A stretch of DNA of 64,000 nucleotides. Origin: Commensalibacter oyaizuii (GTDB taxonomy: Bacteria > Pseudomonadota > Alphaproteobacteria > Acetobacterales > Acetobacteraceae). Position numbers and translations under genes: made by a program. The notes under the pieces are model-generated. The model was given only the letters and a program-made list of their open reading frames with translations. It had not been told where the DNA came from and did no database searches. Positions 7,613-17,423 of the stretch are shown here, in pieces; the stretch's first letter is position 1; the number at the start of each line of letters is the position of its first letter. The stretch covers positions 1,564,001-1,628,000 of the forward strand of contig NZ_JASBAO010000001.1 in the NCBI RefSeq assembly GCF_029953265.1, given 5' to 3'.

Positions 7613-8886
7613 TTGCTTGGAGTATATATATCTGCTCAACATATTCCCTCCAATAGAGGCAGCTTAAGACGTTCTGGCTATAACTCTTTAAAACTATTGG
7701 GAGGTAAAGCCGTAAATGTTCCTTTGGGTTTAATTCAAACCTTCTTAACTATTCATCTATTGAGTGATAAAGGGTATAGATTTCTTATTTTGGTGCATTC
7801 TTTTGTCCAAACTATTGGATATCTAGCAGAATTCCAATCTTGGCAAACCGTTTTGCATTATGGATTAAAACCCTATGAAAATAAGAATATACGGCTATTA
7901 CAACATGTTTTAAGATTTTCTTTTTTACTTGATATCTTTAACTGTCTGTTTGCCCTAGCTTTCGGGGTTATTTGTTCGATTTATTTAAATCACTATCTCG
8001 GGTGGCCTCCAGAGTGGCATTATCTAGGGATCATTTATAGTTTTTGCGTGATTTTTACAACCAGCGCAACATCAAATGGTATTTTACGTCTTTTAAATCG
8101 GTATGATTTGATAGCAATTCAAGGAGTTGTTTTAGTATTTGTCAGACTTATTGGTATTGTTTGTCTAACTCTGATCGGCGGAGGGATACAAGGTGCTGTA
8201 ATTGTCTGGATGTTAGCTGCTTTTATCAGTTTTTCAAGCCTTCTAGCCTTTGCACTGATACAATTGCATCACCACAATTTATTAAAGGGCTTTTTTAGCC
8301 ATCTTAATGAAGGAATGACCAAAAATTTACCTGGGATCTGGAAATTTGCTTGGAATACAAACCTTAATTTGACATTTTCACTAGCTTATAAACAGATTAC
8401 CGTCTTGATTATTGAAGAAGTATTAGAGCCTGTTGCTGCTAGGCATTATAATGTTGCTAATAAAATTTCTGAGGCTATTGCCAAGCTCATTATTTTATTA
8501 CAATCGACTCTGTATCCAGAAATGATAAGATCATGGCAAGGTAGTAAACCAAGCCCTCTCTATAAAATGGCTTTTCAAATTACTTTACTAACAGGATGAA
8601 TAACAACCCTTATTTTTCTAATTCTTCCCTATGTAGCAGTTCCAATCTTAAAGCTATTACTACATAAATCACCCCCCCCCTGAAATCTTGGCGCTATTAT
8701 ATTGGCTAGTAGGGGCAGGATTCATTTTAATCTGGGGAATATGTTTGGAACCGATCCTAATCACAACTGGAAACACGTGGGGAGTGGCCCAGCAACACTC
8801 ATTGCAGCATTTTTGCTAATTTCTTTACAGTTAGGGTTCATTCTTTATAAACCAAGAAAGATTACAACAACTACCAATAGGGTATG
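7613..8886 (+). pseudogene. Decayed polysaccharide flippase (Wzx-like) gene
   Basis: Remnant of an oligosaccharide/O-antigen flippase. The first 328 codons encode a multi-helix membrane protein with family-like text (RRSGYNSLKLLGGKAVNVP near the N-terminus). A TGA at 8597-8599 then ends the frame. Recognisable coding continues downstream: the original frame runs to a run of nine C (8672-8680), after which the coding signal moves by one base (EILALLYWLVGAGF), and it returns to the first frame near 8775 (GPATLIAAFLLISLQLGF) before stopping at 8885-8887. One stop and two opposite frame shifts show an inactivated gene. The product would have moved lipid-linked sugar units across the inner membrane, in keeping with the nearby rfb operon. 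Sequencing error in the homopolymers is possible but would not explain the TGA. Confidence 0.8.
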
Positions 8887-8918
8887 AAATTTAAAAATAA
8901 ATAATATATTTGAAATTT

Positions 8919-8994
<76 letters not shown>

Positions 8995-8999
8995 CACCA

Positions 9000-10706
9000 C
9001 GTCAATGACGACATCTTTTGTTTCTATCAAGACAAGAAACAGAATACAAGAGAAATAATATTTTTTATATTCTTTGTCCACCTGGCCTTGAACACATACG
9101 ACTTTACCTTTGTCTTAAACCTTTAATCCTGGCTAAATATAATGGATAATGGTGTTATTTTCCTTAAGTTAATACAATATATTAAATAGGATTTCTAAAT
9201 TAATCATAGTAAAACTGTAGAAATATTTAATTCTACACGATGAATGTATATTTTTCATAAATTTGTGAAAATAATAAATTAACTGAAACGAAATACTGTT
9301 CTGGTAGTGGTCTACGATGAATCTACTTCTCTACTCTATCAGTTGATCACGATTAATGTGTTATAATTATTTAAATTTTTGTTTTTTTTGTTTACCAAAA
9401 ATTAATATTTTGTTAACTATTAGCACTTTAAATTTTATATAATAGCTTATAATAAAATATGCGATATTCTAAAGATTCCTAATTATCTACAAATAATAAT
9501 GATTAAATTTTTACTTTTGTATCGTGCTAACTTCTTGTTAAATTCTTGTGACATTTATAAAATGAATTTTAAATAATACCTACCCTCTTAAAATAGTTAA
9601 ATTAGCAATGTGGATGTAATTTTAAAATTCTAATGCAGCAAGCAGCTTCTATTATTAGATCGCCAGATCAAATGTTTACAAATACGCATATTATAATTAG
9701 CTAAAATATACTTCGACTTATATAAATAATTTATAATTGCAAGTGACGAAGAGATAAGTATTAATTAAAACTTTATAAATATTTTCTATAAATATCTATG
9801 AATACATTAATATCTAAAATACAATCAATGGAATATATACTCCTAAACAATCAGCGAAATTAATTAATAAAGATCGCAGAAGTAAAAGTGCTATTTATTG
9901 ATGATCATAATCTGTTTTATTCTAATCTTTGTTTCATTTAGAAATAAAATGAAATTCAAAATTGCATATAAAGTTTCAAATGAATTAAAGAGATCGAATT
10001 TGTGAAAAATTCTTCTAAACATCTATTAGACGCAATATCAAATTCTTATATTTTAATTTTAACAGAGTGAAAAGCATTAAACTGCTGAAATATGCGTGAT
10101 CAAATATAAAAATATTAACAAAAAAGCATAAACTCTAACTTTTAGTCAAAAGTATAAAAACTATCTAAGGAAAAAAAACTAGCTTTGTTTACAAAAACGT
10201 TATTAGTAAAAAGATTATACATCTCCATGCTTTTTTCGAAAAAAGTATAGTTAAGCCACAAGTTCAAGATATTTTAAGAAACTAAAAAAATCTAAAATCA
10301 CATTCAGACTGTTTTCTATACTTTAGAAAAGCATACGAGTTAAAAACTCTCTCCATCATTAAATACCATGTAATTAATTTCGTTTATAGAAAACAGCATT
10401 ATCACAGAAAATATAAATAAATATATCCATGTATTAAAATATATCTTTAGCGCATAAAAAAAGATTTATTCTCTGCAAAAACCTATCTGCCAACAGGTAT
10501 GATTTTTAATAAATATGTTTGAACTAATTTAAAAAATAAATGGTAACGCTTAAACACATATTAGCATTTTCAACTGTATCAAAATTTACAAACATATTTC
10601 ACAAAATGAATATTCATTAATATTAGTTTTAAAAACTTAATATAATATACGCATCGAAAAAAACATCTGAATTGTAAAATCAACTAAATTAGCCATAATT
10701 TTATAT
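9000..10706. other. Gene-free AT-rich region, candidate replication origin
   Basis: About 1.7 kb with no plausible gene on either strand and visibly higher A+T than its surroundings. It lies between tRNA-Lys and the parB end of the partition operon. One sequence one base off the DnaA-box consensus is seen (TTATCTACA, 9483-9491). No perfect TTATCCACA was found. Short motifs recur, for example GTTTAC preceded by T (near 9388, 9674, 10188) and several GATC. The position beside parABS is what one expects near oriC in alphaproteobacteria, but the scarcity of DnaA boxes weakens the case. Alternatives are decayed DNA or unrecognised small RNAs. Confidence 0.4.
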
Positions 10707-10740
10707 ATTTGTCAGTATATCACTTTCTGTACTGACAAAT
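10707..10740. terminator. Perfect hairpin at the end of the parB operon
   Basis: Perfect 11-bp inverted repeat ATTTGTCAGTA (10707-10717) and TACTGACAAAT (10730-10740) with a 12-nt loop, 13 bp beyond the parB stop on the minus strand. The stem is AT-rich and the following T-run is poor, so it could be a terminator or a protein-binding palindrome at the edge of the gene-free region. Confidence 0.55.
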
Positions 10741-10752
10741 TTGACTTTAATC

Positions 10753-11670
10753 TTATTTTTTTAATACGTTTAAAATCTCATCGAATTGTTCCAGGGATTT
10801 ATAATATATCCGTACAGACCCTCCCTTACCGTCAAATTGGATCTGAACATTCAAGCCCAATTTGCCACGCAAATCTTTTTCTAATAGTTTAATCTCAGGA
10901 TCAACCAGCTCTACTTGTGCTTTCTTTTGAGGTTTCTTTTCTTTATCACGTTTAACCATTTCCTCAGTTTGTCGAACCGTTAATCCACGCTTAATTACCT
11001 CTTTCATTGCAGCTACAGGATCAGGATGTCCTAATAAGGCCCTGGCATGCCCGGCAGTAATATGACCATCTTTTAAACATAGGATTACTTCGGGAGGCAA
11101 TTGTAGTAATCGTATAGTGTTGGTTATATGAGGACGTGATTTGCCAACAGCTGTGGCCAACTCTTCTTGCGTCAGTTCAAATTCGTCCAACAATCGGGAA
11201 AAACCCTCTGCCTCTTCCACGATATTTAAATCTGCTCGCTGTAAATTTTCAACCAAAGCAGCAGCCATAGCATCGCTGTCACTTAACTGACATACCCTGA
11301 CGGGCACCTCGTGAACTGTTGCGAGTTGGGCAGCACGCCAACGACGCTCGCCAGCAATAATCTGATAATATCCTTGATGGCCGGGTTTTTCGCGCACCAA
11401 TAATGGTTGTAAAATCCCATGATGTTTAATCGATTCAGCAAGCTCAGCCAAAGCCTCTGGCATCATTGCCTGACGAGGTTGAAATGGCCCAGGTTCAACC
11501 ATTTCAATTGGTAAAGTTAGCAAAGTTATACCAGAAACCTGTTGAGCAGTTTGTCCTTCTTCAGTTTGTGTTTTATTCGAAACCGATGGAACTTCTGTAA
11601 CAGCCCCACCCAACAGAGCTGCCAATCCCCGCCCCAGCCGTGCTTTATCCTGACCTTTTTTTACTGCCAT
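10753..11670 (-). CDS. parB: Chromosome-partitioning protein ParB
   Basis: CTP-dependent DNA clamp that loads at parS sites and spreads to form the partition complex. 305 residues: the basic N-terminus with LGRGLAALLGG (which in the family contacts ParA), the ParB/Srx nucleotide pocket with GERRWRAAQLA and NLQRADLN, a helix-turn-helix region (ELATAVGKSRPHITNTIRLL) that reads parS, and a C-terminal dimer domain. The ATG at 11670 follows AAGG with a 9-bp spacer, 24 bp after parA. The two parS sites it should recognise lie 1.4 and 3.6 kb away, in rsmG and mnmE. It ends at a perfect hairpin beside the gene-free region. Confidence 0.97.
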   Translation of the reverse strand: MAVKKGQDKARLGRGLAALLGGAVTEVPSVSNKTQTEEGQTAQQVSGITLLTLPIEMVEPGPFQPRQAMMPEALAELAESIKHHGILQPLLVREKPGHQGYYQIIAGERRWRAAQLATVHEVPVRVCQLSDSDAMAAALVENLQRADLNIVEEAEGFSRLLDEFELTQEELATAVGKSRPHITNTIRLLQLPPEVILCLKDGHITAGHARALLGHPDPVAAMKEVIKRGLTVRQTEEMVKRDKEKKPQKKAQVELVDPEIKLLEKDLRGKLGLNVQIQFDGKGGSVRIYYKSLEQFDEILNVLKK

Positions 11671-15001: not shown

Positions 15002-16339
15002 TTATTTACCAATACAGAATTGGCTAAAAATTGTATCCAACAGATCCTCTACACCAACTGAGCCTGTTAATCTACCTAAACTTTGCATTGCCAATCGCAA
15101 CTCTTCACCGCGCAACTCTGGCCATTCTACGCGTTTAGCCTCTTCTAAATGCTGAACGCATTCCATGATCCCCAAACGATGACGAATACGGGTCAAAGGT
15201 GGCGGGCCTTGATGGGTGGTCAAATATCGTGCCCGTTCTGCCAAAACACGTTTTAAGTCAGCAATTCCCTCGCCCGTTTTAACACTTATAAGCAAAGTTT
15301 TAATATCTTTTGCAACAAATGTTTCACGTGAAACATTTAAATCGATTTTGGTTCTGATCCAAAAATCGCAACGCACTTCTGGTTCTTTGATATCAACAGA
15401 TGCATCGGTTAAACATAACACACAATCTGCCTCCTGCCCAATCTTCTGTGCCCTTCTGATTCCCTCTGCCTCGATCACGTCTTGGGTTTCACGCAATCCA
15501 GCCGTATCAACCAAAGTAACTGGCACGTCGCCCAACACCACCCTAACTTCAATTGCGTCGCGTGTTGTACCAGCCTGTTCAGTCACAATGGCGGCATCAC
15601 GATCCACTAATAGATTTAGTAAACTGGATTTCCCTGCATTTGGTGCCCCTAAAATAGCAAAAACCAAACCACGACGTAATCTTTCCCCTCGTCCGGCATC
15701 ATTCAAATGATCATTCATTTCTTGATGTAAGACTGCAATCGTATTTTTTAAATTTCGTTCTACTTCTTCGGGTAAATCTTCATCAGGAAAATCAATCAAA
15801 GCTTCTTGATATGCCAGAACCTCGCGCAATTTATTGGCCCACTCACGATAAACGATACTAAGACCACCCTCAGTTTGTTCCAGAGCTTGCTTTCTTTGCG
15901 CTTGAGTCTCAGCTTCTACTAAATCTGAAATACCCTCAGCCTGCAGTAAATCAACCTGACCATTGATAAATGCTCTTTTTGTAAATTCGCCCGCCTGTGC
16001 AGGTCTGGCACCATAAAAAGCCAACGCCTCTGCAACTGCATCAATGACGGCTGGACCTGCATGCAAATGCAATTCTGCGCTATCTTCACCTGTATAACTT
16101 TTGGGGCCTGGAAACCAAATAACCAGGGCTTGATCCAATAATTCATCCCCTTCTGACCCGCGTTTCCATAGCCTGCGAACAGAGGCCTGACGAGGCATAG
16201 GCATCGTGTCACATAATTTCTCCAAAATCTGCAAGGTCAACGCCCCACTAATTCGCATAATAGCAACCGCTCCTCGTCCAGAGGCCGTTGCCAATGCAAA
16301 AATAGTTGAATCTGAAGAAAAAGATGAAAGTGTATTCAT
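15002..16339 (-). CDS. mnmE: tRNA modification GTPase MnmE (TrmE)
   Basis: GTPase that works with MnmG on wobble-uridine modification. 445 residues: N-terminal tetrahydrofolate-binding domain, a helical domain, an inserted G domain with P-loop GAPNAGKSS and switch motif DTAGLRE, and the diagnostic C-terminal FCIGK carrying the conserved Cys. A loop in the G domain contains NVSRET, encoded by the second parS site (15320-15335). First gene of the minus-strand run reaching to parB. The start ATG at 16339 has only a weak ribosome site. Confidence 0.96.
15320..15335. promoter_or_regulatory. parS partition site 2 (inside mnmE)
   Basis: Perfect TGTTTCACGTGAAACA, identical to the site in rsmG and about 2.27 kb from it. 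In mnmE it is also read in the frame that gives NVSRET. Two sites this close form the ParB loading centre. Confidence 0.96.
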
Positions 16340-16532: not shown

Positions 16533-16844
16533 ATGATTCGTGATTTATCCCACAACGAAGTTGCACAAGTTTCAGGCGCTCTTTTGGGAGCTTCTTTATT
16601 AAGCAATTTAGGTTCAGCAATCGGTTCAATTGCTGATCAAGCATTCAAATCCGTACACGGCGTTGCCCCAGCAGTATCTTATGAACCCTTCGCATCTCAA
16701 TTGGGTTTGGGGATTGGATATATTTTTGATTCTGTTTTCGATCACTCGCTCAGCAGCTTAGTATCAAGCAACATGACAGCAGGTATTTCTGGCATTGTTA
16801 ATGCAGTAAAAGCAAATAACGCATATCTGTCCTCTCTAGCTTAA
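16533..16844 (+). CDS. Bacteriocin-like peptide precursor with double-glycine-type leader
   Basis: 103-residue product. Its first 16 residues, MIRDLSHNEVAQVSGA, match the leader pattern of class II microcins/bacteriocins (R-x-L-x-x-N-E-h-x-x-V-S-G-G), here with Gly-Ala in place of Gly-Gly. Peptidase-C39 ABC exporters cleave after such a motif. The remaining 87 residues are hydrophobic and rich in Gly, Ala and Ser (for example LLGASLLSNLGSAIGS), with no Cys, which fits a membrane-active peptide. No exporter, peptidase or immunity gene lies beside it, so it would rely on a transporter elsewhere. Its own strong terminator follows. The function is inferred from leader and composition only. Confidence 0.65.
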   Translation: MIRDLSHNEVAQVSGALLGASLLSNLGSAIGSIADQAFKSVHGVAPAVSYEPFASQLGLGIGYIFDSVFDHSLSSLVSSNMTAGISGIVNAVKANNAYLSSLA

Positions 16845-16878: not shown

Positions 16879-16920
16879 AAGGCTGTATCTAACAATGTTT
16901 AGATACAGCCTTCTCTTTTC
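16879..16920 (+). terminator. Terminator after the leader-peptide gene
   Basis: Perfect 14-bp stem AAGGCTGTATCTAA (16879-16892) and TTAGATACAGCCTT (16899-16912) with a 6-nt loop and a T-rich tail. It isolates the small gene from ogt. Confidence 0.85.
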
Positions 16921-16973: not shown

Positions 16974-17423
16974 ATGTCACAAATTTCTTTTCACTCGCCT
17001 ATTGGTGAGATCAGTATCGCTGAAGAGGATGGTTTTCTCGTTTCTATCGATTGGGGATGGGGGAGTATTCAAGAAGAAACCCCTTTACTTTTACAAGCTA
17101 AACAACAGTTAAATGCGTATTTTGATGGTGAATTAAAAAACTTTGACTTGCCTCTTCGTCCCTACGGCACCCCCTACCAACTTAAAATATGGAAAACTTT
17201 ACAAACAATTCCATATGGGGAAACACGTACTTATCAAGAAATTGCACAAATCGCTGGGGGAAGTCCACGTTCAGTTGGTGGTGCGAATGGTGCAAACCCT
17301 TTACCTATTATCATTCCCTGTCATCGTGTTGTAGGTTTAAAGGGTTTAGGGGGATATTCTGGCGGTGATGGTATTGAAACCAAACAACATTTATTAAATC
17401 TAGAACAATTATTTAAAAAATAA
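16974..17423 (+). CDS. ogt: Methylated-DNA--protein-cysteine methyltransferase
   Basis: Suicide repair enzyme that takes the alkyl group from O6-alkylguanine onto its own cysteine. The 149-residue protein has the active-site motif IIPCHRVVG and the following LGGYSGG, preceded by IPYGETRTYQEIA in the DNA-binding half. The length fits Ogt rather than two-domain Ada: there is no N-terminal Ada zinc domain. Monocistronic, between terminators on both sides. Confidence 0.93.
   Translation: MSQISFHSPIGEISIAEEDGFLVSIDWGWGSIQEETPLLLQAKQQLNAYFDGELKNFDLPLRPYGTPYQLKIWKTLQTIPYGETRTYQEIAQIAGGSPRSVGGANGANPLPIIIPCHRVVGLKGLGGYSGGDGIETKQHLLNLEQLFKK

What the first reader, a model, noticed from the sequence alone, without database searches (positions are those of the whole stretch)
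16533..16844. Orphan bacteriocin-like precursor with a Gly-Ala leader
The first 16 residues fit the class II microcin/bacteriocin leader (Arg-x-Leu, Asn-Glu-hydrophobic, Val-Ser-Gly-Ala), and the 87-residue core is hydrophobic, Gly/Ala/Ser-rich and Cys-free. The gene has its own strong terminator but no exporter or immunity gene beside it. This could be a secreted antimicrobial or signalling peptide of a gut symbiont, not obviously like a known family.
Basis: partly seen in the sequence, partly recalled or inferred. Interest (0 to 1): 0.68.

Follow-up and report, generated by a model that had tools for sequence, protein, structure and literature searches.

The report
Unlinked member of exported peptide family
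A small gene in an insect-gut bacterium encodes one of about ten related peptides that are probably cut and exported by a single secretion pump encoded far away on the chromosome, perhaps to harm neighbouring cells, although no shared gene protecting the producer was found.

Summary
The ORF is real: 16533-16844 (+), 103 aa, a 16-aa leader ending Gly-Ala, own terminator. It is an orphan only locally. Its genome (genus Commensalibacter) holds ten full-length members of the family. Five lie in tandem beside an HlyD-type adaptor and the genome's only Peptidase_C39 ABC exporter, about 0.56 Mb away; five, this one included, are scattered. A leader matrix from 22 other members ranks this leader first of 64,083 stop-free 14-codon stretches of the window; a core-only profile finds the ORF at 4e-17. 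A precursor sits between mnmE and ogt in 5 of 9 genomes of the genus and diverges faster than its neighbours. The exporter keeps its catalytic triad and a TolC is present. In two congeners no precursor was found beside the sole exporter, which points to export at a distance. No membrane ORF of immunity type recurs across the genus's precursor loci; single-locus candidates exist. Best reading: an exported peptide of a glycine-zipper family, working like class II microcins or Caulobacter CdzC/D, probably antagonistic. Export is well supported, toxicity is inference. This member lacks a GxxxGxxxG zipper and is only 9.7% Gly.

The parts
16533..16844 (+). CDS of the double-glycine-leader precursor, 103 aa plus stop
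   Evidence: homologues
16533..16580 (+). 16-aa leader ending Gly-Ala; hydrophobic residues at -4 (V), -7 (V), -12 (L)
16581..16841 (+). 87-aa core, Cys-free; helices predicted at residues 20-42, 50-69 and 74-102 (model of moderate confidence)
16608..16637 (+). first conserved glycine block, residues 26-35 (LGSAIGSIAD); G27 and G31 invariant in the 20-member alignment A1
16701..16730 (+). second conserved glycine block, residues 57-66 (LGLGIGYIFD); G58, G60, G62 invariant and D66 nearly so in A1
16879..16918 (+). intrinsic terminator: 14-pair stem-loop at 16879-16912, then a T-rich tail
15002..16339 (-). flanking gene mnmE (context only; conserved neighbour)
16974..17423 (+). flanking gene ogt, methylated-DNA cysteine methyltransferase (context only; conserved neighbour)

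Best explanation
The gene encodes the precursor of a small exported peptide. The exporter encoded about 0.56 Mb away (C39-peptidase ABC protein plus HlyD-type adaptor, with a TolC) recognises the leader, cuts it after Gly-Ala and exports the 87-aa helical core. It is one of ten members of a diversified family fed to that one exporter. The most likely role is short-range antagonism of other bacteria by inserting into their membranes, in the manner of class II microcins and CdzC/D. Shown here by sequence: leader, family, exporter with catalytic triad, a TolC, conserved gene position, unlinked layout. Inferred: cleavage, export, surface or extracellular location, membrane action, killing.
For: Ten full-length members plus one ORF matching at the leader end in the genome, five in tandem beside MFP and PCAT. 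A single C39 match in the genome; the exporter has Cys27, His100, Asp116, each five below the CvaB triad Cys32/His105/Asp121 given in PMC9746304 (passages). A TolC above the curated cut-off, 261.5 against 225 bits. Leader and core homology tested separately. In 299 family genomes, 12 of 12 with precursors have C39 against 94 of 299 overall (p 5.6e-7); these are only 4 genera, 4 of 4 against 42 of 102, p 0.026. In G100 and G105 I found no leader-bearing ORF around the only exporter, and the precursors found lie elsewhere. GxxxGxxxG occurs 32 times in 23 cores against 6.6 +/- 2.7 in shuffles (related sequences, not independent). Among the nine paralogues of this genome leaders are better kept than cores, 69% against 34% mean identity.
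Against: No small membrane ORF recurs across Commensalibacter precursor loci, and none with a membrane segment lies beside this gene, so no dedicated immunity gene is seen. This member has 9.7% Gly and no GxxxGxxxG; its own GxxxG count is not above shuffles. No segment reaches a membrane-like hydropathy. Its leader is less like its nine paralogues (mean 36%) than they are like one another (69%). Microcin V profile matches occur in relatives only, are below the cut-off where bits were shown, and cover the leader and start of the core. No expression, export or killing data exist here.
Confidence: 0.55

Rival explanations
1. Exported but not toxic: a surface or matrix peptide set that promotes self-aggregation, adhesion or biofilm in the insect gut. 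Different cores would give surface variation, and no immunity would be needed.
For: No immunity-type gene recurs across Commensalibacter precursor loci; many paralogues with diverged cores and better kept leaders; glycine-zipper spacing in the family, which PMC5380434 links to insoluble surface aggregates (passages).
Against: Exporter type and gene layout are those of microcins and Cdz; fast divergence at a fixed locus fits conflict as well. Single-locus membrane ORFs near some precursors could be immunity genes.
Confidence: 0.25
2. Signalling or self-lysis peptide, like the Naps of Neisseria: bacteriocin-like GG-motif peptides that act on the producer population.
For: PMC11798529 (abstract and passages) reports GG-motif bacteriocin-like peptides without detectable antimicrobial activity that promote autolysis.
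Against: Naps are described there as short and cationic, with an immunity-like gene (napI); this core is 87 aa with net charge -2. Receptor or sensor genes were not looked for.
Confidence: 0.12
3. A decaying leftover: this unlinked copy is no longer exported, being more diverged than the paralogues.
For: Leader 36% identical to paralogues, no full zipper, low Gly; no precursor at this place in 4 of 9 genomes.
Against: Intact ORF, own terminator, and intact ORFs at the same place in four congeners at 33-41% identity, with leader and conserved glycines.
Confidence: 0.08

Closest known systems
Cdz system of Caulobacter crescentus (CdzABCDI; [quoted passage not shown]
   Same: Alphaproteobacterial; small proteins with a leader ending G[G/A/S]; glycine zippers in the family; type I exporter (ABC plus MFP) with the TolC encoded elsewhere (PMC5380434: abstract, sections 13, 18 and 32, otherwise passages).
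   Different: That paper gives one to three toxins within 10 kb of the exporter; here ten members, half of them unlinked. No CdzI-like gene identified. This member has no GxxxGxxxG. CdzC/D sequences were not at hand, so no direct comparison was made.
Class II microcins (microcin V and relatives)
   Same: 15-18-aa leader with GG/GA and hydrophobic residues at -4, -7, -12; under 150 aa; PCAT triad; MFP; TolC (criteria from PMC11494933 and PMC9746304, passages).
   Different: Microcin V profile matches only in relatives, none for this protein; no immunity gene found; unlinked; Gly below 12%.
Nap peptides of Neisseria gonorrhoeae
   Same: Several bacteriocin-like GG-motif peptides in one genome; function not classical antagonism (PMC11798529, abstract and passages).
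   Different: Shorter cationic cores, one horizontally acquired island, immunity-like gene present.
Bacteriocin exporter (COG2274) reported in all Commensalibacter genomes studied
   Same: Probably the same exporter gene; PMC10149009 (passages only).
   Different: The passages that I saw name no substrate; the precursor family is what is added here.

Membership tests
Class II microcin | 15-18-aa leader ending GG or GA | tested here: met
   16 aa ending GA
Class II microcin | Hydrophobic residues at -4, -7, -12 | tested here: met
   V13, V10, L5
Class II microcin | Under 150 aa | tested here: met
   103 aa
Class II microcin | Glycine content 12-26% | tested here: not met
   9.7% for this protein; the nine paralogues have 14-18%
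Class II microcin | Encoded near its PCAT exporter | tested here: not met
   about 0.56 Mb away; five of nine paralogues are adjacent
Class II microcin | PCAT with catalytic Cys/His/Asp, MFP and TolC in the genome | tested here: met
Class II microcin | Cognate immunity protein in proximity | tested here: not met
   within 2 kb of this gene the only candidates of 30-280 aa are ogt and a 33-aa ORF without a membrane segment; immunity encoded elsewhere cannot be excluded
Class II microcin | Antibacterial activity | not testable with these tools
   no bench data
Cdz-like glycine zipper protein | 60-151 residues | tested here: met
   103 aa
Cdz-like glycine zipper protein | Leader ending G[G/A/S] | tested here: met
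   GA
Cdz-like glycine zipper protein | One or two uninterrupted glycine zippers (counted as GxxxGxxxG) | tested here: not met
   0 in this protein; 1 in each of the nine paralogues; interruption by Pro or charge was not scored
[quoted passage not shown]
   sequence ends KANNAYLSSLA; no threshold was applied
Cdz-like glycine zipper protein | Type I secretion genes within 10 kb | tested here: not met
   met by five paralogues only
Cdz-like glycine zipper protein | CdzI-type immunity protein | tested here: inconclusive
   no membrane ORF recurs across the genus's precursor loci; CdzI itself was not at hand to search with
Cdz-like glycine zipper protein | Surface-held, contact-dependent killing | not testable with these tools
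   needs bench work
Pfam MccV (PF17508) | Score above the curated cut-off of 27 bits | tested here: not met
   no match for this protein up to E 10; 15 of the 29 members of A2 match at E up to 1, best 1.4e-4; at most 17.3 bits in the 7 relatives shown singly

The most novel reading that the evidence does not exclude
Commensalibacter runs a scattered multi-peptide export system: one conserved C39 exporter serves up to ten diversified, independently placed precursors without cognate immunity genes. The products would be surface peptides for kin recognition or aggregation in the insect gut, or toxins resisted by a general rather than a cognate mechanism.
Probability: 0.3. Interest if true: 0.7.

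Novelty: new variant of a known kind. Interest (0 to 1): 0.5.

Why it matters
A bacteriocin exporter is on record for Commensalibacter, but the passages that I read name no substrate. If the reading holds, this names candidates: a diversified family of ten peptides in one genome of a genus of insect-gut symbionts. It also warns that microcin and Cdz searches restricted to the exporter's neighbourhood would miss half of such a set, and all that I found of it in C. communis. The absence of a recurrent immunity gene makes a clear test of whether these peptides are toxins at all.

Tried and rejected
Pfam and NCBIfam with the protein alone: nothing up to E 10. Single-protein scan of genome contigs: 225 pattern hits, none confirmed. 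Plasmid collection: no match. PDB by sequence profile: four antibody chains at E 0.2-0.27, taken as chance. Structure: AlphaFold2 on six sequences gave mean pLDDT 74.4 and pTM 0.59 for the best of five models (the others 68.5, 58.4, 55.8, 47.8), four helices, one of them in the leader. Foldseek had no match at E 0.001 or better; VIA-align Z was at most 7.3, which the tool calls common for helical bundles. No fold claim is made. I saw no entry titled microcin or Cdz in those lists, which excludes nothing.

Shared upstream motifs were sought by 9-mers: only AT-rich words recurred. Promoter scan at chance level. Separate terminators for the tandem genes: the scan found one in the cluster, at chance level, so this is not claimed. 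The tree has few supported branches (2 of 20 starred). The four mnmE-ogt copies put in it do not form one supported clade: this one pairs with C. intestini (91/83), G103 with G106 (100/100). Orthology therefore rests on position, not on the tree.

Immunity genes: a first scan took ATG starts only and left ORFs of 130 aa or more out of the recurrence test. While checking this report I repeated it with ATG/GTG/TTG and up to 280 aa: 85 candidates, 20 with a membrane segment by hydropathy. Recurrent in the genus are only ogt, two groups of 249-264-aa ORFs (one matches Peptidase_S24; one row of the first group and none of the second were scanned for families; two rows of the second group have one hydropathy segment) and one pair of 254-280 aa. 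In the three g85 genomes a 212-267-aa ORF with three segments and a 237-279-aa ORF with one segment recur. Twelve further membrane ORFs each occur at one locus, among them a 153-aa one with three segments beside the precursor in L018; any of these could be an immunity gene for one precursor.

Rows left out: the G051 match (E 0.007; its frame holds a 291-aa ORF without the leader), and the leader-bearing G297 ORFs (L069, L071) and G013 ORF (L070), which are not in A2. One of the ten own-genome matches (2146722-2147030) runs past a stop codon; the ORF itself is an intact 100 aa. Profile A2 found a match in G040, but A2 contained that sequence, so that hit is circular; with A1, G040 had none. The class-wide search found 3 of 385 genomes, all of this genus; remoter Cdz-like proteins would be missed by it.

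Literature, all in the open-licence library: 'Commensalibacter'+'bacteriocin' (29 papers, 15 listed, one read as passages), 'Commensalibacter'+'microcin' (1 paper, listing only), 'double-glycine leader'+'Acetobacteraceae' (none). I saw no description of this family there; no wider claim is made.

Full report
What is there. The ORF at 16533-16844 (+) encodes 103 aa. Its first 16 residues fit a double-glycine leader ending Gly-Ala; the 87-aa core is free of Cys and rich in Gly, Ala and Ser, but only moderately hydrophobic. A strong terminator follows at 16879-16912. Within 2 kb the only ORFs of 30-280 aa clear of larger genes are ogt and a 33-aa ORF without a membrane segment. mnmE lies upstream and ogt downstream.

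It is not an orphan in its genome. A whole-protein search of the source genome gave ten matches at E up to 10, itself included. A profile (A1, 20 sequences, ten of them from this genome) gives ten full-length members and one ORF matching at the leader end only. Five members lie in tandem (L014 11719-13962, minus strand), directly followed by an HlyD-type adaptor (10246-11556) and a C39-peptidase ABC exporter (8060-10249). That is the only Peptidase_C39 match in the genome at E up to 1. The other five, this one included, are scattered; this one is about 0.56 Mb from the exporter (coordinates).

Leader and core were tested separately. A leader matrix from 22 relatives, this protein left out, scores this leader 21.3 bits, first of 64,083 stop-free 14-codon stretches of the window, the next 9.3. 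Core-only profiles place this ORF first of 1,051 frames of the window: E 4.1e-17 from all 22, 4.3e-13 from eight exporter-linked members, 1.8e-10 from the nine paralogues. In A1, R3, E9, G15, G27, G31, G58, G60, G62 and G84 are invariant. Among the nine other paralogues of this genome the leader averages 69% identity and the core 34%; with this protein included, 62% and 33%.

Whose genome. Eight exporter relatives were found in named records: seven at 73-84% identity, titled Commensalibacter papalotli, C. communis, C. intestini, C. melissae and uncultured Commensalibacter (three loci of two assemblies), and one Clostridia MAG at 27%. The species of the window itself is not named by any search.

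Position and evolution. Of nine genomes of the genus, all have ogt. A precursor sits between mnmE and ogt in five: G000, G101, G102, G103, G106. In G105 the gap is 73 bp; in G104 it holds a 343-aa ORF. In G100 and G040 other ORFs lie upstream of ogt, and mnmE was not seen within the 1.5 kb held there. Against the window, the other precursors at this site are 33-41% identical, while in the same four genomes MnmE is 71-87% and Ogt 63-76% identical, and Rho, where next to ogt, 95%. The tree does not join the copies into one supported clade.

Exporter and precursors. All nine genomes of the genus have a C39 match, one of them two; with profile A1, eight of nine have a precursor, in G100 a weak match at 1.2e-4. 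The ninth, G040, has a different leader-bearing Gly-rich ORF beside its exporter. Leader-bearing ORFs adjoin the exporter genes in G000, G101, G102, G104, G106 (two loci) and G040, and in three genomes of another genus, g85. In G103 a precursor lies about 1.6 kb from the C39 domain. In G100 and G105 no leader-bearing ORF was found in the 17-22 kb around the sole exporter, and the precursors found are elsewhere; an ORF with an unrecognised leader could have been missed. In G030 the related precursor is on another contig than the exporter, which has two other short leader-bearing ORFs near it. In the 299 family genomes, 12 have precursors and all 12 have C39, against 94 of 299 (p 5.6e-7), but these are only four genera (4 of 4 against 42 of 102, p 0.026). 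The exporter has Cys27, His100 and Asp116, each five below the CvaB numbering given in PMC9746304. A TolC scores 261.5 bits against a cut-off of 225; the genome has 12 outer-membrane-efflux domain matches, so which protein serves the exporter is not known.

Mechanism. Shown by sequence: leader, family, exporter with intact triad, adaptor, TolC. Inferred: the exporter cuts after Ala16 and exports the core. The core is predicted helical (shallow alignment), and the family is enriched in glycine-zipper spacing: GxxxG 92 against 47.1 +/- 5.8, GxxxGxxxG 32 against 6.6 +/- 2.7 in 23 cores (members are related, so not independent). GxG is enriched too (73 against 48.3 +/- 6.1), so the four-residue spacing is not the only pattern. 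CdzC/D with such zippers stay on the producer's surface and kill on contact (PMC5380434; abstract, passages, sections). I judge short-range antagonism the most likely role, but this member lacks a GxxxGxxxG and is not itself enriched.

Against a classical bacteriocin. Around 27 precursor genes no small membrane ORF recurs across Commensalibacter loci. The wider scan does show other things: an S24-type neighbour of the exporter locus in some genomes, a three-segment membrane ORF beside the precursor in all three g85 genomes, and twelve membrane ORFs found at one locus each. Immunity could be among these, be encoded elsewhere, or be missed by the hydropathy cut-off. The rival, exported but non-toxic surface peptides, therefore keeps real weight.

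Comparison. For class II microcins, leader, size and machinery criteria are met; glycine content, linkage to the exporter and a nearby immunity gene are not. For Cdz-like proteins, size and leader are met; zipper and linkage are not met by this member, though the five clustered paralogues meet both. I do not file this protein as a member of either; it probably works like one. Unusual are the number and scatter of precursors for one exporter: PMC5380434 reports one to three toxins per system. PMC10149009 (passages) reports a bacteriocin exporter (COG2274) in all Commensalibacter genomes studied; the candidate substrates are what is added here.

Noticed in passing
L014:14289-15083 (-); similar ORFs in L080, L081 (one group) and L077, L078, L079 (a second group); L075:10139-10894: An ORF of about 250-264 aa lies next to the exporter/precursor locus in several Commensalibacter genomes. 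The G000 copy matches Peptidase_S24, so it may be a LexA/CI-like regulator of the locus. Families were searched only for the G000 copy; the L075 copy looks alike by eye.
   Followed up: partly
L077:12831-13100 (-), L079:13276-13545 (-), L080:16391-16570 (+): A second kind of leader-bearing ORF near the exporters: 89 aa, His/Asn-rich, in G106 and G102 (C. melissae), and a 59-aa ORF in G101 (C. intestini) whose C-terminal part looks similar by eye.
   Followed up: no
L073:6560-9494: In G105 a 1.6-kb unit with a 317-aa ORF (reads as a malate dehydrogenase, recalled) and a precursor is duplicated in tandem; the two precursors are identical.
   Followed up: no
L085:7214-7399 (+): An eleventh leader-bearing ORF in the source genome, 61 aa, with a different short core.
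   Followed up: partly
L089:6735-7888 (-): In G013, another genus of the family, three tandem precursors share the MRELSVVEL leader but have different, very Gly-rich cores with many GxxxG repeats, closer to the Cdz description; the C39 exporter is about 178 kb away.
   Followed up: partly
L077 and L078 (G106): One uncultured Commensalibacter assembly has two exporter loci, each with its own linked precursors; strain mixture in the assembly is not excluded.
   Followed up: no
L086:8380-9018 (+), L087:6674-7477 (-), L088:8116-8772 (+): In the three g85 genomes a 212-267-aa ORF with three hydropathy segments lies beside the exporter-linked precursor; it could be an immunity gene or an unrelated transporter.
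   Followed up: no
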